This document shows, piece after piece, positions 4,795-63,835 of a stretch of DNA of 64,000 nt; position 1 is the stretch's first letter; every line of letters starts with the position of its first letter. Source of the DNA: Diphasiastrum complanatum (taxonomy: Eukaryota > Streptophyta > Lycopodiopsida > Lycopodiales > Lycopodiaceae); contig CM055096.1 of assembly GCA_029204225.1 (NCBI GenBank), forward strand, positions 34,425,143-34,489,142, read 5' to 3'. The position numbers and the translations under genes are program-made. The notes under the pieces are model-generated. The model had not been told where the DNA came from. It saw only the letters and a program-made list of their open reading frames with translations, and did not search any database.

Positions 4795-4799
4795 ACATC

Positions 4800-5226: not shown

Positions 5227-5239
5227 TGGTATCAGAGCA
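5227..5239 (+). promoter_or_regulatory. Primer-binding site (initiator Met-tRNA type), Copia A
   Basis: TGGTATCAGAGCA directly abuts the 5' LTR, complementary to the 3' end of plant initiator methionine tRNA, the usual primer for Copia minus-strand DNA synthesis. Confidence 0.92.
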
Positions 5240-6631: not shown

Positions 6632-6649
6632 GTGTTTTGGATCTTGAAG

Positions 6650-7815: not shown

Positions 7816-7819
7816 GTCA

Positions 7820-9985
7820 CACTAAAGTACCGTAGGTGAATCTTGTACCATATGTAGTAGAATCCTTCGTAACCATATTGCTTCACTTGCTACACTTGTA
7901 GGAGCTCGATATTCTGCCTCTGTAGATGATAATGCAATAGTATGTTGTTTCTTTGAACTCCCAGAGATAGCACCATAACCAGGACTAAAAACATAACCTG
8001 TAGTAGATCTTCGGTCTTCCGCATCTCTAGCCCAATCAACATCTACATAGCCCTGTAACTTCAAAATTTCATAGTTGCACTGCGTTTCAGAGAACACGAA
8101 TCTGAAAAGAAAAAACATTTAATTTTTTTTTGTGGGCAATATGGGTATGCAACAATGCCTGTTAGATTCTATCAAGGTTAAAAGTTTTCTATGGAAATGT
8201 GTTCCATTTCTTGTCAAATCACTGCATTGATAATGAGCAGTTATTATGCCAAGACCACCCTCCCCCCTTCTATCCTCCTGCGTTTCTGGAAAAAAAAAAT
8301 TCCTTTTTTTCTACGTTTCTATCCCGGAATGAGAAACGGGGAAACGTGTTTGCCCAAAAACGCGTTTCTGTGCAACTATGCTTCAAATCATCCTGTCTCC
8401 CATAAAGAATACCAAATCTCAAAGTACCCTGGATATATATGAGTATCCGCTTAGCAGCTCTCTAATGAATTTGCTTAGGCTTAGCCATAAACTGACTAAC
8501 CATACTCATAGCATAAGCAATATCTGGTCTCGTAGTAGTTCAATAGATTAAGCTGCCAACAAGCTTTTTGTATAATGTCTCATCTACATTCTGATCCTCC
8601 TCAACTTTAATAAGCTTACATCCACTATCATATGGTGTAGAAATAGGCTTGCACTCTAACATATTGAACTTTTCAAAGTTCATGAGCATACTTAGATTGA
8701 GAAATAAATAGCCCATGTGCTACTCTCCATACCTCAATCCCAAGAAAATATTGTAGTGAACCAAGATCTCTTATGTCAAACTCCGATGAGAGTTCTTTTT
8801 CTTGATACCCTGAATACTATGATCTGATCTTGTATTAACAAGGTCATCCACGTACATCACTACAATTACAATATGACCATCCCCGATCAAAACATAAAGT
8901 GTATGCTCCGAACTACTCCTCTGAAAGCCAAGCTCCTCAAAGTATGTGTCAATCCTCGTGTACCATGCCCTAGGTGCCTACTTAAGTCCATATAGTGCCT
9001 TGTCCAACTTGCAAACTTTGTCTTCATGTCCTTTTACTAGGTATCCCTCTGGCTGCTCCACGTAGACTTCCTCCTCTAGAAATCCATTCAAGAATGCACT
9101 CTTCACATCCAGTTGTTGAATATCCCATCCAAACTGAGCTGCCAATAATAAAACCGTCCTCACAGTAGTAGACTTAGCAACTGGTGCAAAAGTTTCTTCA
9201 TAGTCAATCCCTTTCTATTGAGCATAACCTTTTGCCACCAATCTTGCCTTATGTTTATCTATAGAACCCTCTAATTTGTACTTAGTTCTATAGACCCACT
9301 TGCATCCAATGGCCTTTTTACCTGTAGGTAACCGAACAAGTCTCCAAGTCTCGTTCTTAATAATTGAGTCGTACTCCTCATCCATAGCTTTCCTCCAAAT
9401 ATCCTCTTTTAGCTTGTTTGAAAGTAGATGGATCCTTGGTTTCCAATACTGTGGCCATATATGCAAAATGTACATCCCCATCTTTGTGATGATCTTCGTG
9501 ATGATCCTCCTGTTGATCCTCTTGTTGATCCTGATGTTCATGTTGCTTTTCAAGTCTAGCCGATCTCCTAGTCTCATGTGTACTGGACTCTCCCTGTTCC
9601 ATAATGGCACCATCCTTGAGTACCATCAGGCAATCTTCTAGCTTCTGATGTAGGATACTTCCTGCCTAGTGAAGTAGGAGGTGAATAAGTATCCCATATA
9701 CTTGATATCTCCTTCCTCTTTTCTTTCTCAACAAAGGTCACTCTAGGTATTTGGATTGGCATAGGCGATACATGTGTTGATTCGGGTCCCTGGGCCCCTG
9801 TAATAACTCGTCACACAATATAGGGATTCCTCCATCTTGATTCCTATCATAAGGTATCTCTGTATCTTTATGAGTTGCCTCCTCACCAAAGATTACATCT
9901 CTGTTTATGATGACTTTCTTACCCTCCAAGTCATACAACATGTATCCCTTCTCTTGACTATCGTATCCAAGGAATAAACGCTTGG
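7820..9985 (-). pseudogene. Inverted Copia A segment: integrase C-terminus, reverse transcriptase, RNase H
   Basis: Read on the - strand from about 9,985 downward, this begins with the integrase tail (KRLFLGYDSQEKGYMLYD), then the linker, then reverse transcriptase from about 9,395 (EEYDSIIKNETWRLV, KAIGCKWVYRTKY, ARLVAKGYAQ; then [19 protein letters not shown] near 9,110; MYVDD near 8,850). RNase H follows (YVDVDWARDAEDRRSTTGY, LSSTEAEYRA), ending near 7,822. Several stops are present. It starts almost where the + strand integrase ends at 7,815 and ends almost where + strand RNase H resumes at about 9,990, so an in-place inversion of one element is more economical than insertion of a second element. 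A hAT-like insertion interrupts RNase H. Confidence 0.82.
8070..8380. mobile_element. Small hAT-like non-autonomous DNA element (311 bp)
   Basis: The ends are perfect 11-bp inverted repeats: CATAGTTGCAC at 8,070-8,080 and its reverse complement at 8,370-8,380. The flanks carry an imperfect duplication, CTTCAAAAT (8,059-8,067) and CTTCAAAT (8,381-8,388), about 8 bp as expected for hAT. It splits the inverted RNase H frame exactly between residues that should be adjacent (DDLK and LQGYVD on the - strand). No transposase is encoded. The first 10 bases of the terminal repeat are shared with a larger element at 24,850-25,559. Confidence 0.75.
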
Positions 9986-10165
9986 TTGCCTAAATTGGCG
10001 AAAAATCCAATTTTTCACAGCAGGACAAAGCACATTGAAGTAAAACACTTCATCAGAGAGAAGATTCAGAGGGGTGAAGTGGAGCTTATCTATTGTCCTA
10101 CGGAAGAGCAAGTTGCAGATATCTTTACCAAAGGACTTGGCAAAGAAAATTTTTCAGAAGTTTAG
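9986..10165 (+). pseudogene. Copia A RNase H C-terminus (non-inverted end)
   Basis: The + strand frame reads [15 protein letters not shown] near 9,992-10,040, then VELIYCPTEEQVADIFTKGL, the conserved end of Copia RNase H, stopping at TAG 10,163-10,165. The residues just before KNPIFH are on the other strand near 7,820, marking the right inversion breakpoint. Confidence 0.85.
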
Positions 10166-10211
10166 AGAACTTCTAGGAGTAATAGATAACAAAGTAAACA
10201 TCAAGGGGGAG

Positions 10212-10611
10212 TGTTAGGAATTAATGTTTATTTAATACCCCTTAATGATAGTTTGGCCATGCCTATGTGCTATTATAGGGGCCATATAGTAAATTCGTTT
10301 TTTATTGCTTATGCATGTAGGTGGGTGCACTACTACTAGATTAGGATCTGTTTTACTACTTAGAAACTCATCTTGGGTCTTTGCCCAATATAGGTAGTAA
10401 TTTTAGCAATTAGATTTTGTTCTTTTGTTATTTGCTTTAGGCTTTTAGCATTTCACATAGATTAGATAAACTATATATGTACGCTAGCGCCTCACAAGAG
10501 CTTTGCTCAACTCTCCTATAATCCGAATTCTCGATAATCTCTATGCTTGGTTTGTGTGAGTGCTAGTAAAACTAGTAACGTCATATAGAATTTGTTTGAC
10601 AAATTCTAACA
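10212..10611 (+). repeat. 3' LTR of Copia A
   Basis: A 400-bp partner of the 5' LTR, beginning TGTTAGGAATTAATG and ending TTCTAACA. A polypurine tract (AAGGGGGAG, 10,203-10,211) lies immediately upstream, as needed for plus-strand priming. It is followed by the ACATC target duplication. Confidence 0.93.
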
Positions 10612-10616
10612 ACATC

Positions 10617-11435: not shown

Positions 11436-12628
11436 TGTAGCGCAGGCATCCCAAAGGGAACCGGGAACCACGACTTAGCTTCCCAGCTTTCAACTCGTGC
11501 CATCCAAACCCACTTGACATATAAGCAGCCAACTCGCCAACAACGATCAGACTTAACCAACTTGAAGTTCCGAAAACCAACATTGAGATCCAACCTGGCG
11601 CCATGCCAAATCGGGGGTCCCGATGTGGGTGACTTCCCTCCAAGCAAGCCGCCCGACATACATCAAACTTAACCTACTCGAAGCTTCGTTATAAACGAGT
11701 AACATCCATTCTAAGCAAGCGGTCTGACTTACATCAAACTTAACCAACTGAAAGCTTCGTCACGAGCGCTGGAAGCCAACCTGGCACGCCAGATTGGACA
11801 GCCATAAACAGGTAACTTCCACCCAAGCAAGCCATCCAACTCAGCCGACAAGTTAGAGCTCATTCCCCAAGAGCTTAACCCATTCACGTTCATGCAAGGA
11901 ACACTCAGAACCACAAGCCGCGACAGATATGGAGACAACCAATTCCTGGACCAAATGGTCCCGACAGCATACCGCTGCCGCCACGGACCGAATGGTCCCG
12001 ACGGCATACCATTGGCATCCCGGGATATGACCCTCAGTTATGTGCCAACTTAAAAATTTTGAAACAGCCTTACAACTAGCGCTTTTACCGAACACTGAAA
12101 CCCAGAAGGTAATCAGAGTCAGTTTGAGAAAAATCCCACTATATTGATAAATCTGAGAAGGTTACATTTCAAGTGTGTGACCGACCCTAGTCTCCGGGGT
12201 GCTAGCATGCCAAGGCGAGAGCCATGACAACGTTCCAGCAAGGGAGACCGAGACTTGGTTGGAGCTCGCCCTGAGTCGCAACCCGTACTCTCCTATAGTA
12301 TTGGTGGGATTCGGCACTCCCCCTCATAGCAAGCACTCTACCCAGGCTGGTAAAGCACATTTTTCTCTCTCTAAAATTTTCTCTCTCTAGAAAGTCATTT
12401 TATCTCTCTAGATTTTATTGATCCCCAGGCTTCCTTTAATCATGCCTAGATCGTGTGAGGTGTTGCACATCGATCTGAGCTCTCTGGACTTCGCTAGAAT
12501 CAATCAAAGATTTTCAGCCATAGGAACTTGGCGTCAACGCCGGGAGCAGCTGGGGCGCTGCTGGCGCCGGGGACAATGCTGGCGCCTGTGGCGCCGAAAG
12601 TAAAGCTTATAAAGGTAGCTTTACAACA
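11436..12628 (-). repeat. 3' LTR of the LARD-like element (left copy)
   Basis: 1,193 bp, highly similar along nearly its whole length to 15,314-16,508. The copies differ mainly by point changes plus small insertions/deletions in a GGCGCC-rich stretch near the right end. Open frames seen here are mirrored in the other copy and show no protein family. Confidence 0.9.
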
Positions 12629-13261
12629 TTCACCCCACCTTTAAAAAATCTGATGTCCTCATCATATGTCAGATTAAAGTAAAGGTGTCTCCCAATTGAA
12701 ATAAATATACATTTAAGCTACTTGGCACAGTACTCAATTTACTGGCCACTTTTTATTAACATTGAAGCTGACACAACACAAGTCGGGGGCTCAGCTCTTT
12801 GTACTGAAAAATTACATAACTTGAAAATATCTCTTTGTCTGGGAAAAGCGTAGATTTTATATCACTAATGTAAAACCCAAGAACCTTATTAACTGGTGAC
12901 AAAGGCGTTTCTGTGAAATGTTCGCCCCTGTCGCTTCTAACTTTTTGACTTTGGAATTCCTTTGAGCTCCTGATTTGTCCTTGATGCACTTTGTGTTGAG
13001 CTCCCTGAGCTCCAGATTTGATCAGTTCCGCACAGGTATCAAGGCTCCCTGAGCCAAAGGATTTATCGTTCGATTACCCACTTTATGGTCCACTCTGTGC
13101 CTTGTTGCTTCTGCACCTTGATTTCTCTCATTGTCCCAGCCTGATCTTGATACTTTTCCTTCTTGGCTCTTTAAGGTAGGCACAGATTGAGTACTCCGCA
13201 ATGCACCTCTCACTTAGCTTGAAGTAGACATTGACCTCGTGGAGAGCCAAAGGGTCGCACC

Positions 13262-13600
13262 AGTTTGATCCGCATACGAACTATCTCTTCGCGTTTGTTT
13301 GAAACACCATGTCCGTCGCGCAAAACTTGACTTTCACAATTCCATCACTGGTCAGTTGCCTCACAGTCAAAACAAGAAGTGTACATCGAGCTTGGCTTCA
13401 AGTAGCTCTCTTTGAATCAGACACATGCACCCAGAGTTTGCACTAGTCCGATCTCAATACGAACTGTCCCTTAGCGTCCGTTCGAAATACCAAGTCTCTC
13501 ATGCAAGACTCAACTTTCACAGTTCCTTCATTGATCAGCTGCCTTACACGTAACACAAGCCAGTGTACTCATATGTTTCCTCATCATTGTTGGTCCAGAG
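13262..13600. repeat. Diverged tandem duplication, about 183-bp period
   Basis: The segment starting near 13,267 (GATCCGCATACGAACT) recurs near 13,450 (GATCTCAATACGAACT), and the similarity continues through TCGAAATACCA-like and CTTTCACA-like motifs. It lies inside the LARD-like element and is unrelated to coding sequence. Confidence 0.65.
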
Positions 13601-14464
13601 AAAGCCTATAACAAGCTTTCCTTTCCACAACAAAAACTTGTCAACTTATTAGGTCCAAAGTTCGCCAGTCTTCTCGTGTGAGTATGACTAGGTCACCTTG
13701 AATTTGTCCCCGTTTTGATCAACTTTCATTCAAAATTTGCCCCAAGAGAGAGGTGTGTGTGATAGTTCCCCTCTACTTATAAAATCAGCTGATCGGACTT
13801 AGAGTAGAGTTCTTCGGACAAAAAGCCTTTCCAACACTTTGCTTCCCATCTGCTAGGATTATGGCTTGATTCAACTTGTTGCCAATCTCTGAAGAGGATC
13901 CTAGTCTTTCCCCTTTGAGGAAAAATCCAACTGATACTGGATATCACCCATGCTCAGTGAGTTTCAGTTCCGAAGGTGGTCGTCCCAAAATGAAGACCAA
14001 CTGCTCCATAGAAGATCTCCCCTGAAATTGCCCTTTCCAACTTTTGACTTCCCGCTTGCGTCTGGTGGGCGTTGTCGCAAATGAAGCTAACCCAAGAAAC
14101 AGGCTAGCCATCCATCCTTTGCAAACATTGAGTCATTTCGTTGCCGTTCACGTGCGAGTACTTGAACTGCAAATCCGCCCCACAGATTCTGTAGTCTTCT
14201 TTGTTTAATGGTATCAGCCTTCAAAAGAAAGGTTCCTTCTCGAGCCATCAGCTCCTTGTATCACAAGCAATCATGCAAACTAGGCAAAGCACGAGTACTA
14301 AGACTCACCACGAATACATACAAGTAAGACACTCAGGCAGGTTTACTAACAAATAACAAAGACAAGGTCCACCTTTGAGATGGTCCTGCCAACGGACCTT
14401 TGCCTGGCCACGCCCATACAAATCGATTACAGAATCAGCCCACATAGGACACCCCTCCAACTAT

Positions 14465-15240
14465 CCGTGCTTTCACCATTAAGCAGCACATTGCCTCAGT
14501 CACGCGCCACCACTTTTTGGTCGATAGCCCTTATAGTTAAATGATCGGCAGCTATCCTTGAATATACCACCCCCGTGCTTTCACCGTTAGGCAGCACATT
14601 GCCTTAGTAACGCCCCCCACCAAATCTAGTCGATAGCCCTTATAGCTAAACGATCGGCAGCATACCCCCCAATCGTGGACCCGTGCTTTCACCATTAGGC
14701 AGCACATTGCCTCAATAACGCCCCCACCAAATTTGGTCAATAGCCCTTATAGCTAAACGAACGGCAGCTACCCTTGAATATACCACCCCCGTGGACGCAC
14801 CCGTGCTTTCACTATTAGACAGCACATTGCCTCAGTAACGCCCCCACCAAATCTAGTCGATAGCCCTTATAGCTAAACGATCGGCAGCATACCACCCAAA
14901 TCGTGGACGCACCCGTGCTTTCACCGTTAGGCAGCACATTGCCTCAGTAACGCCCCCACCAAATTTGGTCGATAGCCCTTATAGCTAAACAAACGATGGC
15001 TATCGCGAATATGTCACCCCGCACCCCACAAGGCACAGACCGTGCTTACACCAACCTAATGGCAGCACATTGCCTCATCTGTCCTACGTGCAGACCGCGC
15101 CAGGCCCGAACCGCGGAAACTGACCGTGCTTACACCTCAAGGGCAACACCTTGACTCATCAAGCCCCCGTTCTACCGACCACCCCGACCGTGGACGCACC
15201 CGTGCTTACACTGTGGGCAACACCTTGCACAACAGTTGTC
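14465..15240 (-). repeat. Degenerate tandem array, about 8 units of 76-127 bp, beside the primer site
   Basis: The anchor CCGTGCTTNCAC recurs at 14,465, 14,573, 14,681, 14,801, 14,913, 15,040, 15,124 and 15,200. The first five units also share GCAGCACATTGCC and GATAGCCCTTATAG; the last three are shorter and more diverged. On the - strand the array sits in the 5' leader, 60 bp downstream of the primer-binding site, where packaging or dimerisation signals would be expected. Confidence 0.85.
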
Positions 15241-15298
15241 TTGATGAACCCCAAACAGTGGCCATTTTCGTGAGATCCGCATAGCTGACCGGCCAGTC

Positions 15299-15311
15299 GG
15301 CTCTGATACCA
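15299..15311 (-). promoter_or_regulatory. Primer-binding site of the LARD-like element
   Basis: GGCTCTGATACCA is the reverse complement of TGGTATCAGAGCC. It lies two bases from the right LTR, a typical spacing, and sets the strand of the element. Confidence 0.9.
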
Positions 15312-15313
15312 CA

Positions 15314-16508
15314 TGTAGCGCAGGCATCCCAAAGGGAGCCGGGAACCACGACTTAGCTTTCCAACCTTCAACTCTTGCCATCCAAACCCACTTGACATAT
15401 AAGCAGCCAACTCGCCAACAACGATCAGACTTAACCAACTTGAAGTTCCGAAAACCAACATTGAGATCCAACCTGGCGCCATGCCAGATCGGGGGTCCCG
15501 ATATGGGTGACTTCCCTCCAAGCAAGCTGCCCGACATACATCAAACTTAACCAACTCGAAGCTTCATTACAAACGAGTAACATCCATTCCAAACAAGCGG
15601 TCTGACTTACATCAGACTTAACCAACTGAAAGCTTCGTCATGAGCGTTGGAAGCCAACCTGGCGCCACGCCAGACTGGACAGCCATAAACAGGTAACTTC
15701 CACCCAAGCAAGCCATCCAACTCAACCGACAGGTTAGAGCCCGTTCCCCAAGAGCTTAACCCATTCACGTTCATGCAAGGAACACTCAGAACCACAAGCC
15801 GCGACAGATATGGAGACAACCAGTTCCTGGACCAAATGGTCCCAACAGCATATCGCTGCCGCCACGGACCGAATGGTCCCGACGGCATACCGTTGGCGTC
15901 CCGGGATACGACCCTCAGCTATGTGCCAACTTAAAAATTTTGAAGCAGCCTTACAATTGGCGCTTTTACCAAACACTGAAACCCAGAAGGTAATCAGAGT
16001 CAGTTTGAGAAAAATCCCACTTTATTGATAAATCTGAGAAGGTTACATTTCAAGTGTGTGACCGACCCTAGTCTCCGGGGCGCTAGCATGCCAAGGCGAG
16101 AGCCATGACAACATTCCAGCAAGGGAGGCTGAGACTTGGTTGGAGCTCGCCCTGAGTCGCAACCCGCACTCCCCTATAGTATTGGTGGGATTCGGCACTC
16201 CCCCTCATAGCAAGCACTCTACCCAGGCTGGTAAAGCACATTTTTCTCTCTCTAGAAAGCCATTTTCTCTCTCTAGATTCTATTGATCCCCAGGCTTCCT
16301 TTAATCATGCCTAGATCGTGTGAGGTGATTGCACATCGATCTAAGCTCTCTGGACTTTGCTAGAACCGATCAAAGATTTTCAGCCATAGAAACTTGGCGT
16401 TGGCTGGATTCTGGTCACAGTGGCACTAGGAGCGGCGTCGGGAGCAACTGGGGCGCTGTTGGCGCCAGTGGCACCGGAAGTAAAGCTTATAAAGGTAGCT
16501 TTACAACA
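15314..16508 (-). repeat. 5' LTR of the LARD-like element (right copy)
   Basis: 1,195 bp partner of the left LTR. On the - strand it opens TGTTGTAAAGCTACC with a TATA-like CTTTATAAGC within the first 30 bases, and ends GCGCTACA. Confidence 0.9.
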
Positions 16509-30600: not shown

Positions 30601-31183
30601 TTTCATCTTGTAGTTGGTACTAATGGAGAGCTATCAATATGAGGAGGACAGCCATAGCAAACAAAGAGGATACTAAGCAATTTTCCAAAAGCTATGGAGA
30701 GCAGCTTGTGGAGAATTAGAGCACACTTCTTCTGGGAGATCCTATGAAGGTGCCGACTGTATCTTGGACAAAAGGCCTAGGACAGCCATAGTGTGTGAAA
30801 TTCAAAGTTCAAAATTAAGGGTACTCATCAAGTGGCATAATTGTTAGAAATAAATGACTATGCTGAAGTTAATCCATAGGTTACTTTGACCCAAAAGGTC
30901 GAGATTTGTGTAACCATGGGTATTTAGTTATTTAGGCCATCTTAAGTTTGTCTTAAGTTCAGTTGGACCCAATTTTGGTCATGTACTGACTCGTGGGTTC
31001 TTAGGGGTCTAATTTTGTTTAGGGGCCCTATCTTGACTTTTGGGGGTGCCCTACATTTAGTAAGTGGTTAGCCTTAGGGTTTGGTGGGAATTGGCCACAT
31101 CCAAGTAGAGTACTTAGATGCTCATTGTGTATTCCATTTTGGACAGTTTGGCTAAGCATTGCTCTCCATTGCTCTTGCTGTTG

Positions 31184-31249
<66 letters not shown>

Positions 31250-34200
31250 TGGGCGCCCAGCCTCTTCTCTCTTGTTTCTTGTGGAGAATGATTGATAACT
31301 AGATCTTGGTGACTTGACTCTTGCTTTCCTACATGGTATCAGAGCTACCGGATCCGCAGCAAGCTTGTATGTTGACGCCCTACCAGAAGAGGAGCTTCTC
31401 TGCTTTTTGTTGTGAAATTTCAGCATCCTACTAATCTTTCCAAGTGGAGTTTGGATCAGCTTTTTTGTCTCTTTTCAGGTTGAAGGAGGGCGCCCATCGG
31501 AGATCTTGGAGGAGTAATTTGTGGCACCCAAAAATCAGAATCTCAAATCTGATTTTTATGCAACCAATTTTCAACAAGTTTTGTTCGGAGGAGGGAGCCC
31601 AAAAATCTGCTACTGATTTTTGGTTGTGGTGTCTCCTTATCTTGCTGTTTTTGTTTTCAGGTTTGCATTTGTGTAGGAGGGCGCCCAAAATTCAGTAAAC
31701 CCTATTCAAGGTTAGGTCAACTTGTGGCTAGAGATTTGCAGATTCTCAACAAGCAGTAGGGCACTTTCAATAGCCTGTGTTGATCACACTATTTGGCTTC
31801 CTAATTGGGCTTCGGTGTAGGCTTCAATCAAAGCTAACCTAATTTTCAAGAAGCTGGTTTTTTTGTGTAGAAAGACAGCCATCTTTCCATTATCTTTTGG
31901 GCACTTTGGATGCAGATTGAAAGACATCTAGTGCTCCTACTTTCAGCTCTTTGTTTGCTGCAAATTTTTGAGTAGATTTGGTTGTGGAAAGGCTCTCTTT
32001 CCTATCTACTACAAGCTGAAATTCTGTTGGAGTTAATGGCTAAAGAATCGGAAGCTACGGTTCTTTGTTTAGTGAAGATTGGCTGGAGGGCACAAATTAC
32101 TCCTTGTGGAGTTACATGATGAAGAAGCTTCTCATAACGAAAGGGCTGTGGGATTTGGTCAATGGTGATGAGGAAAGGCCTCTGTCTTTGGCACCTCCTA
32201 CACCTCGTGGATCATCATCAACATCATCTTCTCCATCTTCGCAAGAACAAAAGAAGTGGGATAGAAGGGATGCACAATCACATTCTATGGTTGCTCTTGC
32301 TGTGAAAAGATCTGTCTTACCTCATATTAGGTCTTGTAAGACATCTACAAGTGCATGGGATACACTTTATACTATGTATAGAGTCAAAAATCCAGCAAGA
32401 GTGGTGTATCTCAGAAATCAACTTTCTTTGTTGAAGATGCAAGAAGGGGATCAAGTGACCAATCACTTGACGAAGATCAAGGATCTTTGTGAGGAGCTTC
32501 TAAATATTGATGAGATAATTGAGGATGCTCAATTTGTTTCCATTACTCTCAACTCATTACCTTCATCTTATATTCCATTTGTTTCATCTTTGAGTATCTC
32601 TCTTAGGGGACAGCAGCTCTTCTTTGATGTACTTGTTGGGCTGCTTCTTCAAGAGGAGCAAACGAGGCAAAATTTTGCAGGTGACACTCAACAAGATCAA
32701 GCTTGCTTCACGAAAGGCAAGGGCAAAGGCAAGTCAAAAGGAAAGGGGAAGTCTCCTTCCAAGGATGAGCAAAAGCCCATTGGAGGTCAAGATGTCAACA
32801 CTCAAAAGAAGAAAGGGAAGTGCCTGTAGGAAATAGAAGCCTAAGGATCCAAAATCTTAACTATTCAATCACACAAGCATTCTCAAAAGAAAGAGAGAGA
32901 TGCCTAGAAACCCTCTTGTAGAAACTCGTGGACAGCCAAGGAGAAAAGTTAGTATTGCTTACAAAAGTGTCATATACAAATGGGATGCACACATATATAT
33001 AGTCCAAGATGACTATCTAACTTCATGACTATTGGCTATCCAACTACTTGATTATTGGCTTTCCAACTACTTGACTATTGACTATCCAACTTTCTATAGG
33101 TTACATAGAAAGAATAAGGTACCTCCAATATGTCAAGTTGGGGTACTTAATGTCACAATTAGGCCTAGTGGACCCATGAGTCCCTACCAAGTTAATTTCA
33201 TACTAACTTAGCTAACTCTAAGTTTAGTAAGCCTAATATAATAAATGACCATGGTTACACAACTCTCGACCTTTTGGGTCAAAGTAACGTATGGTAATGT
33301 AAGCGATTCCATTTACATTCCAACACCCTCCTTAAATGGAAATGTGTAACATAACATGAAGTAACTTCTCGAAAGAGAAAAATGCAACTTGCTGTCCGAA
33401 CTTCATGTCGCCAAATAAACTTCGCTCCGAAGTAGTCGAAATCTCATCCCCAATCATGTCCAACATATAAAAGGAATAGAATGCGTAATAATGAAGCATC
33501 AAGTCGAAGGGTGATGATTTGCATGCTCCATCCGAAGTAGGGAACCAACATAAACTCGGCAATAAGTCGAAACATGGACTTGTAATCCATCATAGGCTCC
33601 CACATTATTCGAAAATATTTCTTATCATAAGGACAATAAAAAAGAGTACCAAACTCTTTTGGCATCACATCCTCCCGAACCTTACCATCAATGACTTGCT
33701 CACATAGAACAGGCAATGTACAAACATCATGATGAAGAGTAAGTGTAGAACCAAAAAAATAAGCAAGAGGTGCTGATTTTAAAAAGGCATGTGCCTTCCT
33801 TTCGTAGTAAGACATATCTTCGTTGTCCTACAAAGTCTCCAATAGCCGACAAGGAATTGTTATGGGCTGTTCAACACTTTGCTGACCAAAGTGTTCCCAA
33901 CATGGACCATGTTGTCCATAATCTTCCGCAGGCTGTTCCTGAAGCATAATGGGCTGTAAATGACCAAAGGAAGATGGGAACCTGCTGTCCAACGTCTTCA
34001 TCATAAAAATTTGGCAAACTATCAAGAGATGCATAAACAATGGCGTCATCAAAGCTGTCCCTCGAAGAGGCATGGGATGACATAGAAGATTCTTCAAATA
34101 ATGAAAAATTCTCTCCAAACAAATGCTCACTCTTAACACTTTGAACAAAAGTACTAATTGGCACATGTTGACTCCCTCCTCGATTAGTACAAAAAGGTTC

Positions 34201-37200
34201 CAAAGAGTGTTTGAATTTTTAAACCTTTGCTAAACCATCAAATTGAAAAGGTTTCGCATGAAACTTTTCACTAATGCATCCATCATATGCATCAACTTGC
34301 GGTGACTTGAAAAAAGAAGATTGTTTCAACATCTGCTCAATGTATCGTTGTTGAGAGATGAAGATTCTACTGCCATGCTTTTGGTAAAGAAGGTCACTTT
34401 CTAATGTAATAGGTAATGTCTAAGTTTTGCAATGACGGAATGTGCTTGTGCATCTCGTCGATCCCACTTCTTTTGCTCATCTGAAGACACTTCCGTAGAT
34501 GATGAAGTAGTTGTTCTAGATGGTGTAATAGGTGCCAAGGTAGGCAGCCTCTCTTCGTCACCATTAACTACTTCCCACAAACCTTTTGCAATAAGAAGGT
34601 TCTTTATCATGTACCACCACAAGGAATAGTTTGTGCCATCCAGCCTATCTTCATTAAATAAAGAACCAATAGACTCTGATTCTTTAGCCATAACAGAAAA
34701 ATCAGCTTGTAGTAGATAGGAAATAGACTTTCCAAGACAAAATCTACTCAAAGGGCAGCAACCTCAAAGTTGAAATTATGAGCACAATAGATTGCAATAC
34801 TCCACATGCAATTTGCTCAACAAGTAATGAAATAGATGGTTGCTTTCTGCACAAAAAACAGAATGCTCACAAATAGGTAGACTTCGAATGAAGCCAAAAC
34901 CAAAACCAGAAATTTGTGGCTAAAAAGAGTGCACACTATGTGCATATAGAGCTGATGGTAGCATCCTACTCCAAGCTCACCAAGAGGAAAATTTCAGCAA
35001 GAAACGTGTCCAAAACACATGTATCTTCATTTACGAAGTAAATCTGAAATTTTCAGCATGTAATTGATCACATGCAATTGGTTTGAGCATGGGCGCCCTA
35101 CTCCTAGCTCTCAAATAGGTGAAGGTGCCCTGCAATTTCCTGCAAAAAAGCTATAAGAAGATGAACAGATTCTTCTCTTGCAAAAATCAGCAGCTTGATG
35201 ATTTTCTGCAACCAAAAGGGGAAGAAGATAGCTTCCTATTGGGCGCCCCTCCTACAAGCAATATGATCACCTAAAGGCTCTGATACCATGCAGGAAATAG
35301 AAGCCTAAGGATCCAGAATCTTAACTATTCAATCACACAAAGCATTCTCAAAAGAAAGAGAGAGATGGCTAGAAACCCTCTTGTAGAAACTCGTGGACAT
35401 CCAAGGAGAAAAGTTAGTATTGCTTACAAAAGTGTCATATACAAATGGGATGCACACATATATATAGTCCAAGATGACTATCTAACTTCATAACTATTGG
35501 CTATCCAACTACTTGACTATTGGCTTTCCAACTACTTGACTATTGACTATCCAACTTTCTGTAAGTTCCATAGAAAGAATAAGGTACCTCCAATATGTCA
35601 AGTTGGGATACTTAATGTCACAATTAGGCCTAGTGGACCCATGAGTCCCTACCAAGTTAATTTTATACTAACTTAGCTAACTCTAAGTTTAGTAGGCCTA
35701 ATATAATAAATGACCATGGTTACACAACTCTCGACCTTTTGGGTCAAAGTAACCTATGGTAATGTAAGCAATTCCATTTACATTCCAACAGTGCCATTAT
35801 TGCAAGAAGTATGGGCACTTCATCAAGGATTGTAAGAAGAAGCTTGCGAAAGAAGAGAGTAAAGGAATTGATACTAGTGCTTCACTTGCTACTTTGGAGC
35901 AAGAGCTTGAAGCTAGTGGTGATCTCTTCAACAAGACTATGCTTTTGTGTCTAATATTGCTTCTACTAGTACTTCTACATCTATGAGGAATTCATGTTCT
36001 GTTTTGCAAGTTGCTGATTTTCAGCCCATTGAATGGGTGATTGATAGTGGTGCTACTCGTCATATGACTTCTCACAAACTAAATTAGTGAAAGTGCAAAA
36101 TGGAAGTAAGGTACAATGTGTGGATGATGCATCTTATTCTATTCATGGAATTGGAATTGTAGCCATCATTCTACCTAATGGTGAAGAAAAGTACATTAAG
36201 AATGTGCTTTATGTTCCGGGAATCAAGAAGAATCTTCTTTCGGTTTCAACTATGTTGAAGCAAGGACTAGTTTTTGAGTTCAAAGAAGATAAGTGTCTTG
36301 TCAAGGATCCTAAAAGATCACTCTTGATTATTGTTTCGGGAACAATGCATGCTAACTTATTCATTATGGATACCTATGACCGACGAATTCCCTCTACATG
36401 TCTTGTTGCTTCTACATCACAATCATTGGAGTTGGCTGAATTGTTGCTTCTACATAAGCAATCGTAGTCCTACTAAAGCATTGAAAGTATTAACTCCTTG
36501 TGACGTTTGGTATGGGAAGAAGCCCAGAATCTCTCACTTTCGCATTTTTGGTTGTACGGCTTATGCTTTTGTTCCAGATAAACTTCGTACAAAGCTTGAG
36601 GATAAAGGAGTTAAATGCATTTTTGTTGGCTATAGTAGTGAAAGCAAAGGCTATAGGCTGTTCAATTTGAGCACTAACAAGATTATTGTTAGTCGTGATG
36701 TGCATTTTGATGAAAAGAATTCATTAGATGTGGCCCCAACTCATATCTTGAAGGGGGACAGCCCACATAGTGTGAATGTTGAAGTTTTTCCAGATTTGGT
36801 ACCATCTTCTATTGCTGGAGATAAGGGGCAGCAATCAACCAGTTTCGGACTGCCCAACACCTCATCAAGTTTAGAGCCTAATGTTCATCAAGAACCGCCC
36901 ATTGTTGCTCATAATCAGCCTGCAAGAACTGTTAGACAGGACCAATTTTGAAAAATCTTGGACAGCCAAGTGCGGTGTCGGAAGATCTTGGACAGCAAAT
37001 TGTAAGAAGAGACATGGCTGTTGGACAGGCCAAAACAGTCCTACGGTGGCTGTTGTCGACTCTGCGGGACAGCAAAGGAAGTTCATTTTATGATGGAAAG
37101 ACACGTGCCTCTACAAAATCAGTGGACTATGCTGATTTTTCAGATTTTGCTCTTACATCTCATGGAGATATTGTGGAAGAACCCGATTTTTATGAGTAGG

Positions 37201-40200
37201 CCAAGGGAGTAAAATGTTGGGAGGATGCGATGCAAGATGAGTATGACTCACTTATGAAAAACCAGATTTGGGTTCTTGTTGATCTTCCTCATGGGAAGAA
37301 GGCAATCGGTTCTAAATGGGTATACAAAATCAAGTATAAGGCAGATGGTACCATTGAAAGGTACAAGGCGATTGATGCCGTAATACTTGATCTTGGTATG
37401 GTTTTTGAAACCTCAGATTTAGGCCTATTGCATTTTTATCTTGGTCTTGAATTTGTACAAGAAGGGGCTGGAATTTTCATCTCTCAAGAACGCTACATTG
37501 GGCAGATTTTGAAGCGGTTCAAGATGGAAGATTGCAAGCCGGTTGCTACACCTATTGAGACAGGCCTGAAATTAAGTAGTCAAGGTGATGGTGAACCATT
37601 TGATACTACTTTATATTGTCAAGCTATTGGCTATCTCATTTACCTATGTAATTCAAGACCGGATATTTCTTATAGTGTCTCACTCATGAGTCAATTCATG
37701 CATGCCTCGATGACATCACATTGGAAAGCATTGAAGAGGATCTTTTGATATCTTCAAAGAACAAGAAGTCATGGACTGGTTTTTCCTGCTTGTGATGATG
37801 CATGTTTGGTTGGTTTTAGTGACTCGGATTGGGGTGAAGATCAAGACACTAGACGCTCTATAAGTGGACATTGCTTTTTCTATGGAAATTCTACAATTTC
37901 GTGGTCAAGTAAAAAGCAGCCCACTGTTGCTACTTCTTCTAGTGAGGCAAAATATAAAGCGATATTTTCAGCCACAACGGAGTGTTTATGGCTGAGAAGA
38001 CTACTTGTTGACATGAAGTTTGGCGAGCCCTCAGCCACTCTTATCTTGAGTGATAGTCAAAGTGCTACTACCAATGCACGGAATCCTGTTTTCCATGCGA
38101 GGACGAAGCACATCGAGATCCATTATCACTTTGTTCGGGAGAGACTTCATGATGGCGCCATTTTACTTGAATATTGTCCTACGAAGGATAATATTGCGGA
38201 CCTCTTCACTAAGGCGTTGCCTAGAGTCAGATTTGAAGCTTTATGCAAAGCTTTAAATTTGATACCACGTGTTGGTTTTGTTACATAGTGAAGATTTCAG
38301 TTTTTGCATTGTCATTTAAGGAGGGTGTTAGAAATAAATGACTATGCTGAAGTTAATCCATAGGTTACTTTAACCCAAAAGGTCGAGATCTTAAGTTTGT
38401 CTTAAGTTCAGTTGGACCCAATTTTGGTCATGTACTGACTCGTGGGTCCTTAGGGGTCTAATATTGTTTAAGACTTAGATGCTCATTGTGTATTCCATTT
38501 TGGACAGTTTGGCTAAGCATTGCTCTCCATTGCTCTTGTTGTTGTTTTCTCTCTCTCTCTCTCTCTCTCTCTTAGAGTTGGGCGCCCAGCCTCTTCTCTC
38601 TTGTTTCTTGTGGAGATTGATTGATAACTAGATCTTGGTGACTTGACTCTTGCTTTCCTACATGTTGGAATATCAATCCACACTCTAGAGAGAACTATCA
38701 AACAGGGCGGATAGCTCAGTGGTAGAGCATCCCATCCGGTATGAGGGAGGTCCAGGGTTTGAATCCTAGTCTATCCATCCATACTATGATTTATGGATTT
38801 CTAACATGGTATCAGAGCCAAGTTAGACCTAACAGTTCATGGTGTCAAGTTGTGGGGCAGGTGACAGCTAGGACCCCAACCAAGTGTGGCTTGAGGGGGG
38901 GTGTTGGAATATCAATCCACACTCTAGAGAGAACTATCAAACAGGGCGGATAGCTCAGTGGTAGAGCATCCCATTCGGTATGAGGGAGGTCCTGGGTTTG
39001 AATTCTAGTCTGTCCATCCATATTATGATTTATGGATTTCTAACAATAACACCCTAGTTGGGTTCCTAACCCTGGTTTACCTTCTTTCACTTTTATGAAT
39101 TTAACGATGTCTAATCTTTCTAAAAGCTTGCCTAATGAAGCTAGCTAGCTAGATGGCACTAACTATAGCGTTTGAAATTTCAACATGGAGAACATTTTTA
39201 AAGAAAGAGAATGTTGGGATAGTGACAAATAGAGAACCTGTTCCTACTTCAAAACCTAATCTCAAGGACTATATCAAGAGGGGCAAGAGAGCCTACCATT
39301 AATCTCTCAGTGAAAGATAGCATCATTCTTCACATTAAAGAGACAAGAGGACTCAATCAAGCTTGGGGAATTCTTAAATCTAAGTTTGATACAACCAACA
39401 TAGCAAAAATTTTTACTTGAAGAACAAGTGGAGAGTGTTGCTGAAAAGGATTGGGTGCCATTGGTTTTAAATAGCTTGTGGTATGCTTTTTAGGTTATGT
39501 ATTTATGATTTTTGCAAGGTATAGAATCCCCACTTTCACACACATTTGTATGGTCTTTTGAAACAAGAGGAAACAAGGAGCTTTGAGGGTGAATCTCACA
39601 TAGAGGGAGGATTACCAAGAAATACTTCTAAGAAGAAGTGGCAAATTTAAAGCTTTGGTGTAGAATCCAACAAGGAAGAGAATTAAGACACACAAGTCAA
39701 ATAGAGGTGGTGAGAACATTGCAAAAAAGCTTGTTGAGTTATGAAGGACAAATGATATTACGAGGCAACTTACTACCTCCACATACACCTCCATATAGTG
39801 TACTTGAGAAGAACCGAACAATAGTTGAGTGTGCGCGCAACATGCTCAAGGGAAAGGGGTTGCCAAACTCTTTCAGGGCCGAAGCACTTTATACAACTGT
39901 TTTTCTTTTGAATTGAAGTCCTCCAACAAAAGTTATGGAAGGAAAGACACCAAAGGAAGCATTTGTGGCATCGAGCCCAAAGTGGGAGCTTTGAGGTGTT
40001 TGTTTGTAACTTGTACGACATACACTCATATCCCCAAGGACGATAGGAAGAAGTTGGATGTGAAATATCCAAGTGTAAATACAATGAAGAGGAGAAGGCC
40101 TATAGACCATATAATCTTACAAATAACAGGATCATAAGTGAGGACGTGATCTTTCGTGAAGAAGTATACAATTAGGAGATGGGCACTAGCCCAGTTATGA

Positions 40201-50649: not shown

Positions 50650-51627
50650 TGTTGGGGTGCTCTCGAATAGATTAGATGCGGAAGAAGAGACACGACTCCA
50701 ACATAGAGAAATTTACAAGATCTTTATCAAAACTACAATATCAATATTGACTTAGATCGAATGGAGGAATGTCTTGGTAGGTGTCAGAGACGACCATGAA
50801 GGGAGCGAATAATTAGGCGTCTAAAACAACCATGCTTCCTTCAAGATTAGACATTCCGAATTGAGTGAGTGTCAATAGAGAAAGAAAACTATCAAAGAGC
50901 ATTCGTAGTGCAATACACATAAGAAGAATAGAGTCTGAATTAATGGGTTGTGAGTACAACGATCAAATCACAATCTTGTGCCCAAGAATGGTTCACAATA
51001 ATGGTGCACTATAATGTGTAGTGATCTTACTTGACTAGTTACAAATTAAATAATTATCTCTATCTTTTGAATGGCTTTCACTCTTTCTAAGATCTCTGAT
51101 CTTATGGAATCAGGTAATTGAGACACAATGGAGTTCACGCAAGAACTCTAACTCTTTTCCACTTGTATGTATATTCATCACATATTGTCTCATCATCGTT
51201 TACGTGATTTGCCATTATGTATATATGTACATGGAGCAGTTACATGACTACGTGGGCAACGAGCATGAAATAGTGCAGTTACTGAAAAAGTGAACTGTGA
51301 CGTGGTATGCGTTTGGACAGGGCAGTGTGGATGACGTGGATCTCGAACTCGAAGACTTTGAGTTCATAGGTGATCGAAGAGGATGTAGTCGAACTCAGTG
51401 TGGATGACGTGGATCTCGAACTCGAAGTGTTCGTCGTCGATCCCGCTTCTTCTCCAGTTGATTAAAGCACAAACGTTTCACTTCAGAGAGTAAAACTGCA
51501 AAGCTGTCATAGAGAAGAGAGAGTGTGTGTGTATTTACATAATGTATTGTTGCTTAGGACGAACTTGAATGATTTGTGTTATGATGACACAAATTTTGGT
51601 GAGTTGGAGTAATGCTTAATTCCAACA
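50650..51627 (-). repeat. 3' LTR of Copia E
   Basis: 978 bp from TGTTGGGGTGC to AATTCCAACA on the + strand, with a polypurine tract (TTAAAGGGGGG on the - strand) at its right. Its last 260 bp match 54,968-55,240. A 45-bp segment with GTGTGGATGACGTGGATCTC is duplicated in tandem near 51,325-51,425. Confidence 0.88.
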
Positions 51628-54110
51628 CCCCCCTTTAAGCTTAACTCCTAGGATCCTAAATGAAATTGAGCAAGCTACATAATGTAACCTGCTTTTCTCT
51701 TGACAGAGGCTTAGTCAAGATATCAGCCAACATACTGGTCGTAGGATAGTAACTTAATTCGACATTCTTATTCTAAACTTTCTCTCTAAGAAAATGAAAT
51801 TGGACTTCAATATGTTTAGTTCTAGAGTGACTTCGTGGATTCAGAGATAGAGCAATGCGGCTCTGATTGTCGCAATAGAGTATACTCGGACTTATTTAAA
51901 CGATCATAAGATCCTGAAGCAATCTTTTGAGCCAGATGATTTTCTTCACTACAGAGGTAGCTGTGACATATTATGATTATGTGGAGGACAAAGAAATGAA
52001 TTGTTCCATGAAATGGGTCCTCCTGCTAGAAAGCAAAGATAGCCATAAGTGGATTTTCTTGTGTCCACATTACCAGCCCAATCAGAGTCAAAATAAGTAA
52101 GTAATGTCAAAGTTGCATCCTCTGTATTTCCATTATAACACAAAGCATAATGCTTAGTGGCTTGAATGTATCTTAGTACTCTGAGTAGAGCCTTCTAGTG
52201 AGGTAGGCCAGGATTGGGGGACATAAACTGTGACAATGTGCTGACCATAAATGCTAGATCATGTCTGGTGCAGACCATGGCTTACATTATTAATCCTACT
52301 ACTATCGACTGATAGGGGTATTTGCATATCTCTTTCTTCTCTGCATCAGTTTTCGAACACATATCCTTTGACAATTTGAATCCTGGGTCCATGGGCAAGT
52401 CTATCGACCTGCAGTTTTCCATGCCATACTTGTAGAGTACACTGGTTAGATACCTTTCTTGATTTAGTATGATACTTTTCCTTGCTTTGTCTCTGTTTAT
52501 CTCAATTCTCAGAAGTAGTTCATAGGGCCTGAATTAGTCATTTTGAATTTCTTCGACACAAGGTTCTTCGTCTCATGAAGTAGTTGATTCGAATTGCTGA
52601 TGATCAGTGAGTCAACATATAGAGCTATTATGACATAGAGCCTCTATGTTTGAGATAAACATTAGAGTCAGCAGAGTTCGGGATGAAGTCATGCTGCAAC
52701 AAGAATCGATTGATTCTATCAAATCAAGCCCTTGGAGCTTGCTTTAGCCCGTAGAGAGCTTTATGTAGCTTACATACTTTGTGTTCTTGGCCTTGAAGGA
52801 TGCAACCTTCAGGTTGACATAAGTTTGTTCGTATCCTTTGATGACTAGACGAGCTTTCCCTCTGGTTGTCGAACCATCTGGATTGAGCTTCAGCTTGAAG
52901 ATCCACTTGGTGTCGATGATCTTTGCATCTACAGGAGCTTCGACAAGATGCCAGGTCTTGTTCTTCATCAATGAATTATACTCAGCATGCATGGCAGAAC
53001 GCCAGGTCTGCATTTGAGCTTGACAATGCTTTTGTTATTGAAGTGGGTTCATCATAGTTAATGAATTCCTGAGGGACAAAACGATCAGGTTCTTGTCAAT
53101 GTCTTGCAGATCTTCGAACAATAGTCGGTTGCTGAGATGATAATTTTCCTCGCTGTGTGACAGGAATATCTTCGATGTCCGTCGGAACAGTCGTAGGTCA
53201 AGGCCTGTCGATGGTGATGGGAGTCGTTGGGACGAACTCTTGCATTGGCTGCTTCTGCTTGAAGTTGAAAAATTTATCTTAAGGAAGACAACATCTCGAC
53301 CAACTGAGATTCGGCTCGATTCGACATCAAAAATTCTATATGCCTTGTGTGATGTCGAGTATCCAATGAAGGTACTCGTGCAGCTAACACGGTCAAGCTT
53401 CTTTCTTAAGTCAGAGGGGATGTGTACATAGCAAAGACAGCCAAATACTTGGAGGTGTCGTAGACTCAGTTAGTAGCCATAGAAGGCTTCAAAGAGAGTT
53501 ATTGAGTCGATTACTTTGGTACTCAAATAGTTCTATAGATAGAAAGCTGTTGAAATAGCTTCAGCCCAAAAAAAATTTGGTGAGCTAAGCATTAGACATC
53601 ATCAATCGTGTTGCATTTAGCAATGTTTAGTTCTTCCTTTCGGCTACTCCATTCTGTTGTAGCGTGTAGCTGGTGGTGAACTGATGATGAATGCCAAATG
53701 ATGCCAGATAGTCAAACATTTAATTTGACATAAACTCTCCACCGCTGTCAATACGAAGTGTTTTGAGTCATTGACCAGTCTGTGTCTCAACAAACTGTTT
53801 GAAGTCTTTGAAACAGTTAAATTCCTCTGACTTGTTCTTGATGAACATAATGCTGGTGAATCTAGAATAATTATCAATAAAAGTGATGAAATATAGTGCA
53901 AAACTCATAGAAGGAATATTCCTAGGCCCGCACAAATCACTATGTATTAATTCTAGAATGGACTTAGCTCTAGTGGCTTGTCCCTTTGGGAATCTTGATC
54001 TAGGCTATTTGCCTAGTAGGCACATCTCACAGACATGTCGTATGTCAGTGGAGTCACCATTAAAGTTTAAGTCCTTGATCGTAGAATTATGATGCATATA
54101 AAAGATTGAT
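51628..54110 (-). pseudogene. Copia E integrase, reverse transcriptase and RNase H
   Basis: On the - strand, integrase is read from about 54,055 (CEMCLLGKQPRSRFPK, LIHSDLCGP, FIDNYSRF, then LKTLRIDSGGEF). Reverse transcriptase begins near 53,010 (WRSAMHAEYNSLMKNKTWHL, DTKWIFKLKLNPDGST, ARLVIKGYEQ) and jumps, with an internal loss, to CKLHKALYGLKQAPRA near 52,740; the YVDD block is not readable. RNase H shows YFDSDWAGNVDTRKSTYGY near 52,100 and ADILTKPLSREK near 51,720. More than ten stops or shifts. Confidence 0.85.
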
Positions 54111-54139
54111 CTCATGTTTAGATGTCCTAATCTTTGATG

Positions 54140-54850
54140 TCATAATTGGGCATTTGAAGTATTCACATTTGTGAAAAGTGCATATTTGTGACCCAGAATG
54201 TACAAAGTACCTTCTATGTTTGCAGAGAAGATTTTTTTATCATGCTTGTCTCCCAGAATGGTACACTGCTTTGAATCGAACGAGGCTTTGCAGCCCTGAT
54301 CAATAAACTTGTTGACTGACAATAAATTTTTGGTCAGTTTGGGTACGTATAGTACATCCTTGAGCAAGGTCAGCTTACCAATAGGAAGATAGAGACGTAT
54401 AGATCCTTTGCCTCCAATCTGTAGTGCACTTGAGTCACCCAAGTAGACATGCTTCAAATCTGTTGGTGTGAGGTCTTCGAATAAGGACTTACATGTTGTC
54501 ATGGGATGAGAAGCACCAGAATCGAGATACCAATCCATTGTATCTCTGATGGGTCAATCTTGTATCATTAGCAGAGTTGGTTCATCTTGAGAGGTTCTGA
54601 CAGAATCAAATCCTCTGTCCTGTTGCATCTTCTTCTTGGCTTCGTTATGCTTGAGAACTCGACAATTCTTGACGTCGTGGTTGGTTCTTTTGTAATACTT
54701 GCAGAAGAGTCTGGTCTTAGGCGAACTGTTGCTTATTCGAATAGAGAGCAACTGTCTTCGTATTCGACATGGATAAACTTTTCTTTCTTACTTCTTTCTA
54801 CAATAGGTTTGTTGTCACCTTTTGGAGAGATATGTCAGGAGTATTATTGA
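54140..54850 (-). pseudogene. Copia E zinc-knuckle remnant and protease
   Basis: The gag tail keeps a damaged knuckle (FCKYYKRTNHDVKNC): the second Cys of the CCHC pattern is Tyr. The protease starts at 54,538 with WYLDSGASHPMTTC, the D-S-G-A active site, and continues through VLYVPKLTKNLLSVNKF into the pre-integrase region. A stop separates the two parts. Upstream gag is deleted up to the LTR remnant at 54,968. Confidence 0.85.
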
Positions 54851-54967
54851 GTAGCAATACTAAATTGCCGTAAGAGGGAGGAAGGCGAGACATGTTAGCA
54901 TCTTCGTCTGATATTGGCAAACCTACTATAGCTACTTAACTAATTGAGTAGTTGTTTGAAATTCGCA

Positions 54968-55240
54968 GGTGATCGAAGATGATGTAGTCGAACTCAGTGT
55001 GGATGACGTGGATCTCAAACTCGAAGTGTTCATCGTTGACCCTACTTCTGCTCCAGTTGATTATTGCACAGACGTTCCACTTCAGAGAGTAAGACTACAA
55101 AGTTGTCGTAGAGAAGAGAGAGTATGTGTATTTACATAATGTGCTGGTGCTCAGGACGAACTCGAATGATTCGTGTTCGGATGACATGAATTTTGGTGAT
55201 TCGAATTTTAGTGAGTTGGAGTGATGCTTAATTCCAACAC
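54968..55240 (-). repeat. Truncated 5' LTR of Copia E
   Basis: About 273 bp matching the inner-right part of the 3' LTR, ending AATTCCAACA and followed by the target duplication CCACT. The other 700 bp of LTR and the primer site are missing. Confidence 0.87.
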
Positions 55241-55306
55241 CACTCACAACACATTCAAAAGCTAAAGAGAGTGCATTAACTGTTGGTTCGTTAAATGGAA
55301 ATTATC

Positions 55307-62692: not shown

Positions 62693-63835
62693 ATGTTCGA
62701 GCAGCGACAAAACGAACCTAAAACGAGACAAAGACCTCCAGACCGTTACTCTGACAATCTTCAGTGGAGCGAAGATACACAGTTCGAATACTATAGCTTC
62801 ACTGAAGAGCCAACAACATATCAAGAAGCTATCCAAAGTCCAGAGGGAGAATTCTGGAAGCAGGCAATGTCAGAGGAGATCACGTCGATGAGGCGAAATG
62901 AGGCATGGACATTGGAGCCACTGCCAAAAAACAGGAAAATAGTCGACTGCAAGTGGGTGTACAAGAAAAAGATGAAATCAGATGGCACCATTGGCCGCTT
63001 CAAAGCAAGGCTTGTCGCAAAGGGCTACACACAGAGATATGGTGTTGATTATTTCGACACATATTCGTCGATGCTCAAAATGACAAGCATACGACTACTC
63101 CTTGCATACGCCACACAACACAATCTGGAAATTTACCAGGTTGATGTGAAAACAGCCTTTCTCCACGGAGATCTAGAGGAGGAAATCTTCATGAAGCAGC
63201 CTGAAGGTTTTGAAGGCCTCGACAATAAACAATATGTCTGTCGGTTGCAGAGATGCATCTATGGTCTAAAATAGGCATCACGAGCTTGGTACAAGAAGCT
63301 CGATGGTCTTCTGAAGTCTCTAGACTTTAATCCTACACAACCAGACTGCAATGTCTATATTAAAAGAGTAGGAAAAGATTTTGTGATACTAACTATCTTC
63401 GTAGATGATTCCGTAATGATAGGAAATTCTTTGATGCTGATAAAAGACACGAAGATTCAGATTTTTGAAAACTATGAAATCACAGACCTTGGAGAAACAA
63501 CAAAATGCTTCGGGCTGGAGATCAGAAGAGATCGAACAAAGGGCAAAATGCACTTGAGTCAATCAGAATACGCCAGAAAGGTGCTCAAGCAGTACCACAT
63601 GATGGACCGCAAAGAAAAGGCCACGCCAATGATAGCTGGAGCCAAGCTCACGAAGCAGGATTGCCCAAAAACGGAAGGTGAAGAACAGAAGATGGCAGGT
63701 ATACCCTACCAAAACTTAATCGGTAGTCTGATGTACCTCACAATTTGTACCAGACCCGATCTAGCTTTCTTTGTTTACGCCTTGAGCCAATTCTCTTCCA
63801 ATCCTGGCCTGGCACATTGGCAAATGACAAAATGA
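62693..63835 (+). pseudogene. Copia F reverse transcriptase with intact VDD site
   Basis: The frame from 62,693 covers YQEAIQSPEGEFWKQAMSEE, VDCKWVYKKKMKSDGTIGRF, ARLVAKGYTQRYGVDYFDTY and YQVDVKTAFLHGDLEEEIFM up to CIYGLK, then TAG at 63,272-63,274. The same frame continues ASRAWYKKLDGLL and IFVDDSVMIG, with the catalytic Asp pair at 63,405-63,410. The tail includes YEITDLGETTKCFGLEI, QSEYARKVLKQYHM and NLIGSLMYLTICTRPDLAF, ending at TGA 63,833-63,835. Only one stop interrupts the polymerase. Confidence 0.9.

What the first reader, a model, noticed from the sequence alone, without database searches (positions are those of the whole stretch)
38663..39045. TRIM retrotransposon whose LTRs each contain a tRNA-like gene
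Seen directly: two 144-bp LTRs, primer site, polypurine tract, and in each LTR a 72-nt tRNA-like cloverleaf with A and B boxes. Established knowledge: the plant TRIM Cassandra has 5S rRNA sequence in its LTRs. Inference: this is a parallel solution in which an LTR has captured a tRNA (or tRNA-derived SINE head), giving a retroelement with an RNA polymerase III promoter. I do not know a described plant family with this structure.
Basis: partly seen in the sequence, partly recalled or inferred. Interest (0 to 1): 0.92.

Follow-up and report, generated by a model that had tools for sequence, protein, structure and literature searches.

The report
Helenus-type TRIM with tRNA-like LTRs
A 383-base plant mini-retrotransposon carries a degenerate tRNA gene in each of its two end repeats; this kind of element was described in 2024 under the name Helenus, so this looks like one more member, found directly against the end of a larger Copia element.

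Summary
At 38663-39045 there are two 144-nt direct repeats (139/144 identical, TG...CA ends), a TGGTATCAGAGCC primer site directly after the first and a purine tract directly before the second. ARAGORN and Rfam both call a 73-nt tRNA-like sequence in each repeat, and neither calls another tRNA in the 64 kb. It is a TRIM with tRNA-like LTRs. But the structure is not undescribed: Kojima (2024, PMC10886601) named it 'Helenus', from fungi, animals and one plant, Selaginella moellendorffii. The host here was not identified; it appears to be a land plant, and the nearest named protein to the adjacent Copia gag is from the fern Adiantum, at 47%.

New here: the TRIM abuts the exact 3' LTR end of a Copia element with no base between. 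Neither alone has a target duplication; the pair is flanked by ATAAT/ATAAC (4/5, about 2% by chance per comparison). This is weak evidence for joint integration: of four other LTR pairs in the window only two have perfect duplications. Copy number, relatives and Pol III transcription could not be tested; the genome search was unanswered in nine tries.

The parts
38663..38806 (+). 5' LTR of the TRIM, 144 nt, TGTTGGAATA...TTCTAACA
38902..39045 (+). 3' LTR of the TRIM, 139/144 identical to the 5' LTR
38705..38777 (+). tRNA-like sequence in the 5' LTR (ARAGORN Thr-ggt; RF00005 35.9 bits)
38944..39016 (+). tRNA-like sequence in the 3' LTR (ARAGORN Thr-ggt; RF00005 42.5 bits)
38712..38722 (+). A box TAGCTCAGTGG, 5' LTR (same at 38951-38961 in the 3' LTR)
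38756..38766 (+). B-box-like GGTTTGAATCC, 5' LTR, T for C in the GGTTC core (38995-39005 GGTTTGAATTC in the 3' LTR)
38807..38819 (+). primer-binding site TGGTATCAGAGCC, zero spacer after the 5' LTR (the tRNA-iMet type; that naming is recalled)
38893..38901 (+). polypurine tract GAGGGGGGG directly before the 3' LTR
38807..38901 (+). internal region, 95 nt
30842..31333 (+). 5' LTR of the neighbouring Copia element (called Copia B here)
38326..38662 (+). 3' LTR of Copia B; its last base directly abuts the TRIM
30837..30841 (+). ATAAT, left flank of Copia B; candidate target duplication of the Copia+TRIM pair
39046..39050 (+). ATAAC, right flank of the TRIM; 4/5 match to ATAAT

Best explanation
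[quoted passage not shown] Shown: two LTRs with TG...CA ends, PBS, PPT, and a degenerate tRNA-like sequence with an A box and a weakened B box in each LTR. Inferred: RNA polymerase III recognises the internal promoter in the 5' LTR and transcribes through the 95-nt interior into the 3' LTR, so that the tRNA-like part serves as, or lies in, the repeated R region; the RNA is primed by a host tRNA at the PBS and is reverse-transcribed and integrated with the proteins of an autonomous Copia element. The tRNA part is a promoter relic and not a working tRNA.
For: LTR pair, PBS and PPT in exact positions. tRNA-like calls by two programs in both LTRs; 1 ARAGORN call in 40 shuffled windows. The element has no run of four or more T on the sense strand, so Pol III could read through it; the first TTTT after 38705 is at 39091. 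The PBS 12-mer occurs 8 times in the window, mean 0.00 in 100 shuffles; three of the 8 sites adjoin the LTRs of the Copia or Copia-like elements A, B and C described below, one is the TRIM's own. The architecture matches Helenus as published: tRNA-like LTRs, PBS, PPT, total 311-1263 bp; plant member 120-bp LTR and 85-bp interior.
Against: Absence of TTTT is weak: 154 of 1273 overlapping windows of 383 bp also lack it on the + strand. The 3' LTR holds no T run of four, so 3' end formation is unexplained. The B box lacks the conserved C and the RNA does not fold as a cloverleaf. The TRIM alone has no target duplication. No second copy in the 64 kb, and no relative found in the collections that could be searched.
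Confidence: 0.82

Rival explanations
1. Ordinary TRIM transcribed by Pol II whose LTR carries an old, inactive tRNA-SINE insertion; the tRNA part is a passenger.
For: B box core changed in both LTRs and strict B-box pattern absent; RNA not cloverleaf-like; no T run of four inside the element.
Against: A box intact in both LTRs; the tRNA model still scores 36-42 bits over its full length; the LTR is only 144 nt and half of it is the tRNA part, which leaves little room for a Pol II promoter (inference).
Confidence: 0.25
2. The repeats are a tandem duplication of a tRNA pseudogene or two separate SINE insertions, not LTRs.
For: Single locus only; no target duplication of its own.
Against: The repeat is 144 nt with TG...CA ends, extends 42 nt before and 29 nt after the tRNA part, and is bounded exactly by PBS and PPT.
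Confidence: 0.03
3. For the junction: the TRIM came next to Copia B by a separate event that left no target duplication or lost it, and the 4/5 match of the outer flanks is chance.
For: A 4/5 or better match occurs in 2.0% of random pairs of sites, and three pairings were looked at. Elements without a matching duplication occur here anyway: of four other LTR pairs two have none that is perfect (3/5 and 1/5, the latter with an uncertain left boundary).
Against: The junction is precise to the base at both LTR ends, and two of those four pairs keep perfect 5-bp duplications. LTR divergence does not separate the two insertions in time: 6/336 against 5/144, Fisher P 0.32.
Confidence: 0.55

Closest known systems
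Helenus (Kojima 2024, PMC10886601; abstract, introduction, methods, results, discussion and figure/table sections read)
   Same: TRIM with a tRNA-derived, A/B-box-bearing sequence in both LTRs, PBS and PPT, tRNA part mostly judged non-functional as a tRNA; size range 311-1263 bp includes 383 bp.
   Different: The only plant family there is Helenus-1_SMo of Selaginella moellendorffii (120-bp LTR, 85-bp interior); here 144 and 95. Sequences were not compared (the session allowed no look-ups in supplements). The majority of fungal members use an anticodon-loop primer site; this one has TGGTATCAGAGC, the site that PMC7215508 gives for Cassandra.
[quoted passage not shown] PMC7215508 and PMC10853983, passages seen)
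   Same: TRIM with a Pol III-promoter-like small-RNA sequence in each LTR; same PBS TGGTATCAGAGC.
   Different: tRNA-like and not 5S: Rfam finds no 5S in 38600-39100 even at E up to 1; the published Cassandra box A pattern has no match in the window. Cassandra carries conserved terminators in its LTRs; this element has no T run of four.
tRNA-derived SINEs (SINE2)
   Same: tRNA-like head with A and B boxes (general knowledge).
   Different: Here the tRNA part lies inside paired LTRs with PBS and PPT.

Membership tests
Helenus | tRNA-derived sequence inside both LTRs of a TRIM (the paper's naming criterion) | tested here: met
Helenus | PBS after the 5' LTR and PPT before the 3' LTR | tested here: met
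Helenus | short and non-coding (311-1263 bp in the paper) | tested here: met
   383 bp; no ORF of 150 aa or more overlaps it, and 383 bp could not hold one
Helenus | conserved A and B boxes (GGTTC in the B box) | tested here: inconclusive
   A box met; B box GGTTT in both LTRs. One copy cannot show whether the family has GGTTC.
Helenus | 5-bp target duplication (plant and fungal members) | tested here: inconclusive
   Not met for the TRIM's own flanks (CTACA/ATAAC, 2/5); Copia+TRIM pair 4/5. One copy at an end-to-end junction cannot decide for a family.
Helenus | multi-copy family with solo LTRs | not tested
   no second copy in 64 kb; genome search unanswered
Helenus | transcription by Pol III (expected, not proven in the paper) | not testable with these tools
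   no RNA data
Cassandra | 5S rRNA sequence in the LTRs | tested here: not met

The most novel reading that the evidence does not exclude
The locus is a fossil of one joint integration: a Copia cDNA and a Helenus-type TRIM cDNA, perhaps from the same particle, were joined end to end and integrated as one unit (8.2 kb today, including a 3.0-kb element nested later) with a single 5-bp duplication. That would name the autonomous partner of a Pol III-type TRIM in a plant, possibly a fern.
Probability: 0.3. Interest if true: 0.55.

Novelty: new member of a known kind. Interest (0 to 1): 0.38.

Why it matters
Helenus has been reported from one plant species only in the paper that defined it (PMC10886601). 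A second plant lineage, if the host proves to be one, would make it a wider plant phenomenon next to Cassandra, and tRNA gene counts in such genomes would need correcting for LTR copies. The Copia junction offers a testable candidate for the partner that mobilises such elements; the paper says it is not known how a TRIM's dependence on its autonomous partner is maintained.

Tried and rejected
Relatives of the TRIM: plasmids, queried with all 383 bp, gave one hit, a bacterial tRNA gene on a Curtobacterium plasmid (ARAGORN Thr-cgt), i.e. only the shared tRNA core; phages, queried with the 5' LTR only, gave none; four exact patterns in viral contigs and two in genome contigs gave none. These collections are of viruses, bacteria and archaea, so the misses say little about plants.

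Host identification by proteins: Copia B gag 32065-32829 gave 8 hits, best 69% identical and unnamed, the only named one from the fern Adiantum capillus-veneris at 47%. A second Copia RT (62693-63274) gave 5168 hits; of the 120 listed nine carry a species name, eight flowering plants at 44-55% identity and one labelled Xylella fastidiosa. A third query (gag 5753-6325) gave none. The host stays 'a land plant, perhaps fern-like'; Selaginella itself is not excluded.

Working tRNA gene: rejected because of the mismatched stems, the GGTTT B box and the non-cloverleaf folds. T-run depletion as evidence for Pol III: too common to count (154 of 1273 overlapping windows). Clustering of all 5 LTR differences in LTR positions 74-122 was not pursued.

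The odds of joint integration were lowered from 0.35 to 0.30, and those of the rival raised from 0.50 to 0.55, for that reason.

Literature: seven searches of open-licence PMC papers (one search listed 30 of 48 papers, one search listed 15 of 64). Among the titles and abstract starts listed, only PMC10886601 describes tRNA-like LTRs; PMC12859917 mentions Helenus in a meeting report (passages seen). Most listed papers were not opened. In PMC4717578, the plant TRIM survey, a word search for 'tRNA' found none in the main text. No claim is made that a second plant Helenus is absent from print.

Full report
Observation. The sequence at 38663-39045 contains two 144-nt direct repeats, 38663-38806 and 38902-39045, differing at 5 of 144 positions. 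They begin TGTTGG and end CTAACA. TGGTATCAGAGCC follows the first repeat without a spacer and GAGGGGGGG stands directly before the second. The interior is 95 nt. ARAGORN reports two tRNA-like genes in the whole window, one in each repeat (38705-38777, 38944-39016), and Rfam's tRNA model agrees at 35.9 and 42.5 bits against a gathering score of 29. In 40 dinucleotide-shuffled windows ARAGORN made one call.

Quality of the tRNA part. Both A boxes read TAGCTCAGTGG. The B boxes read GGTTTGAATCC and GGTTTGAATTC, so the usual GGTTC core is changed in both. Each drawn cloverleaf has an A-A mismatch in the anticodon stem, and the 5' copy has a further C-A in the acceptor stem and a broken T-stem pair. 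As free RNA neither copy folds into a cloverleaf, and neither is clearly more stable than shuffles (z 0.21 and -0.87). A 312-nt stretch from the first tRNA part to the end of the second gives z -1.29. It is a tRNA relic with promoter motifs, not a credible working tRNA. The isotype label Thr rests on ARAGORN alone.

Surroundings. The window holds many plant-type retrotransposon pieces. The TRIM lies at the 3' end of a Copia element, here called Copia B: 5' LTR 30842-31333 followed by TGGTATCAGAGC, gag in 32065-32829, an SH3-like polymerase domain in 36331-36951, reverse transcriptase in 37230-37748, 3' LTR 38326-38662. The 3' LTR of Copia B ends with ...CCTACA at 38662, the same end as its 5' LTR, and the TRIM begins at 38663 with no base between.

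Target duplications. The TRIM alone is flanked by CTACA and ATAAC (2 of 5); Copia B alone by ATAAT and TGTTG (0 of 5); the pair together by ATAAT and ATAAC (4 of 5). Random site pairs in this window match at 4/5 or better in 2.0% of cases, and three pairings were looked at. Four other LTR pairs in the window serve as controls: Copia A, ACATC at 4795-4799 and 10612-10616, 5/5; a Copia-like element C nested in Copia B, GTGCC at 32820-32824 and 35791-35795, 5/5; D (11436-16508) CATGT and CGTGA, 3/5; E (51368-55239) 1/5 with an uncertain left boundary. So 5-bp duplications are the rule for the two clearest controls, but elements without one also occur. LTR divergence is 6 of 336 aligned positions for Copia B (gaps left out) and 5 of 144 for the TRIM, not distinguishable (P 0.32). 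This fits, but does not prove, that a Copia B cDNA and a TRIM cDNA were joined at their ends and inserted as one unit.

Mechanism. Shown by anatomy: an LTR retrotransposon frame with no room for the usual proteins, hence mobilised in trans. Inferred: Pol III transcription from the 5' LTR. The element has no TTTT on the sense strand and the first one downstream lies at 39091, outside it, so read-through is possible; but 154 of 1273 overlapping windows of the same length share this, and the lack of a T run in the 3' LTR leaves 3' end formation open. The partner is most likely a Copia element: the PBS 12-mer occurs 8 times in the window against a mean of 0.00 in shuffles, among others next to the LTRs of A, B and C, and the 20 nt across the LTR/PBS junction are identical in the TRIM and Copia A.

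Comparison with the known. Kojima 2024 (PMC10886601) named TRIMs with tRNA-derived LTR sequence 'Helenus' and reported them from fungi, animals and one plant, Selaginella moellendorffii (120-bp LTR, 85-bp interior, 5-bp duplications). The present element meets the naming criterion. It is not Cassandra: no 5S match. Whether it is related by descent to Helenus-1_SMo was not tested. The paper argues that Helenus likely arose several times, so an element can be a Helenus by structure without common descent.

Host. The only named protein among the 8 hits to the Copia B gag is from the fern Adiantum capillus-veneris, 47% identical. That suggests, weakly, a fern or similar plant; Selaginella is not excluded. 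The genome search did not answer in nine attempts, so copy number, solo LTRs and the usual B-box sequence of the family are unknown.

Verdict. Real, correctly described, correctly interpreted in essence, but a new member of a published kind. The added value is a possible further plant lineage for Helenus and a precise Copia-TRIM junction that may record joint integration.

Noticed in passing
32825-35790, minus strand: A Copia-like element nested at the gag end of Copia B: LTRs 32825-33325 and 35289-35790 (97% identical), PBS at 35277-35288, perfect 5-bp duplication GTGCC; its LTR begins TGTTGGAATG, close to the TRIM's TGTTGGAATA.
   Followed up: partly
4800-10611, plus strand: Another Copia element (gag at 5753-6325) with LTRs, PBS at 5227 and perfect 5-bp duplication ACATC; 20 nt across its LTR/PBS junction are identical to the TRIM's.
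   Followed up: partly
38736-38784 against 38975-39023: All 5 differences between the two TRIM LTRs fall in a 49-nt stretch in and just after the tRNA-like part; the 3' LTR copy scores better as a tRNA.
   Followed up: no
11436-16508: A repeat pair 11436-12628 / 15314-16508 (91%), LTR-like with TG...CA ends, enclosing a direct repeat array of about 108-nt spacing at 14465-15077; flanks match at only 3/5.
   Followed up: partly
51368-51629 and 54967-55241: A further repeat pair (84%) whose minus strand starts TGTTGGAATTAAG, LTR-like; left boundary uncertain.
   Followed up: partly
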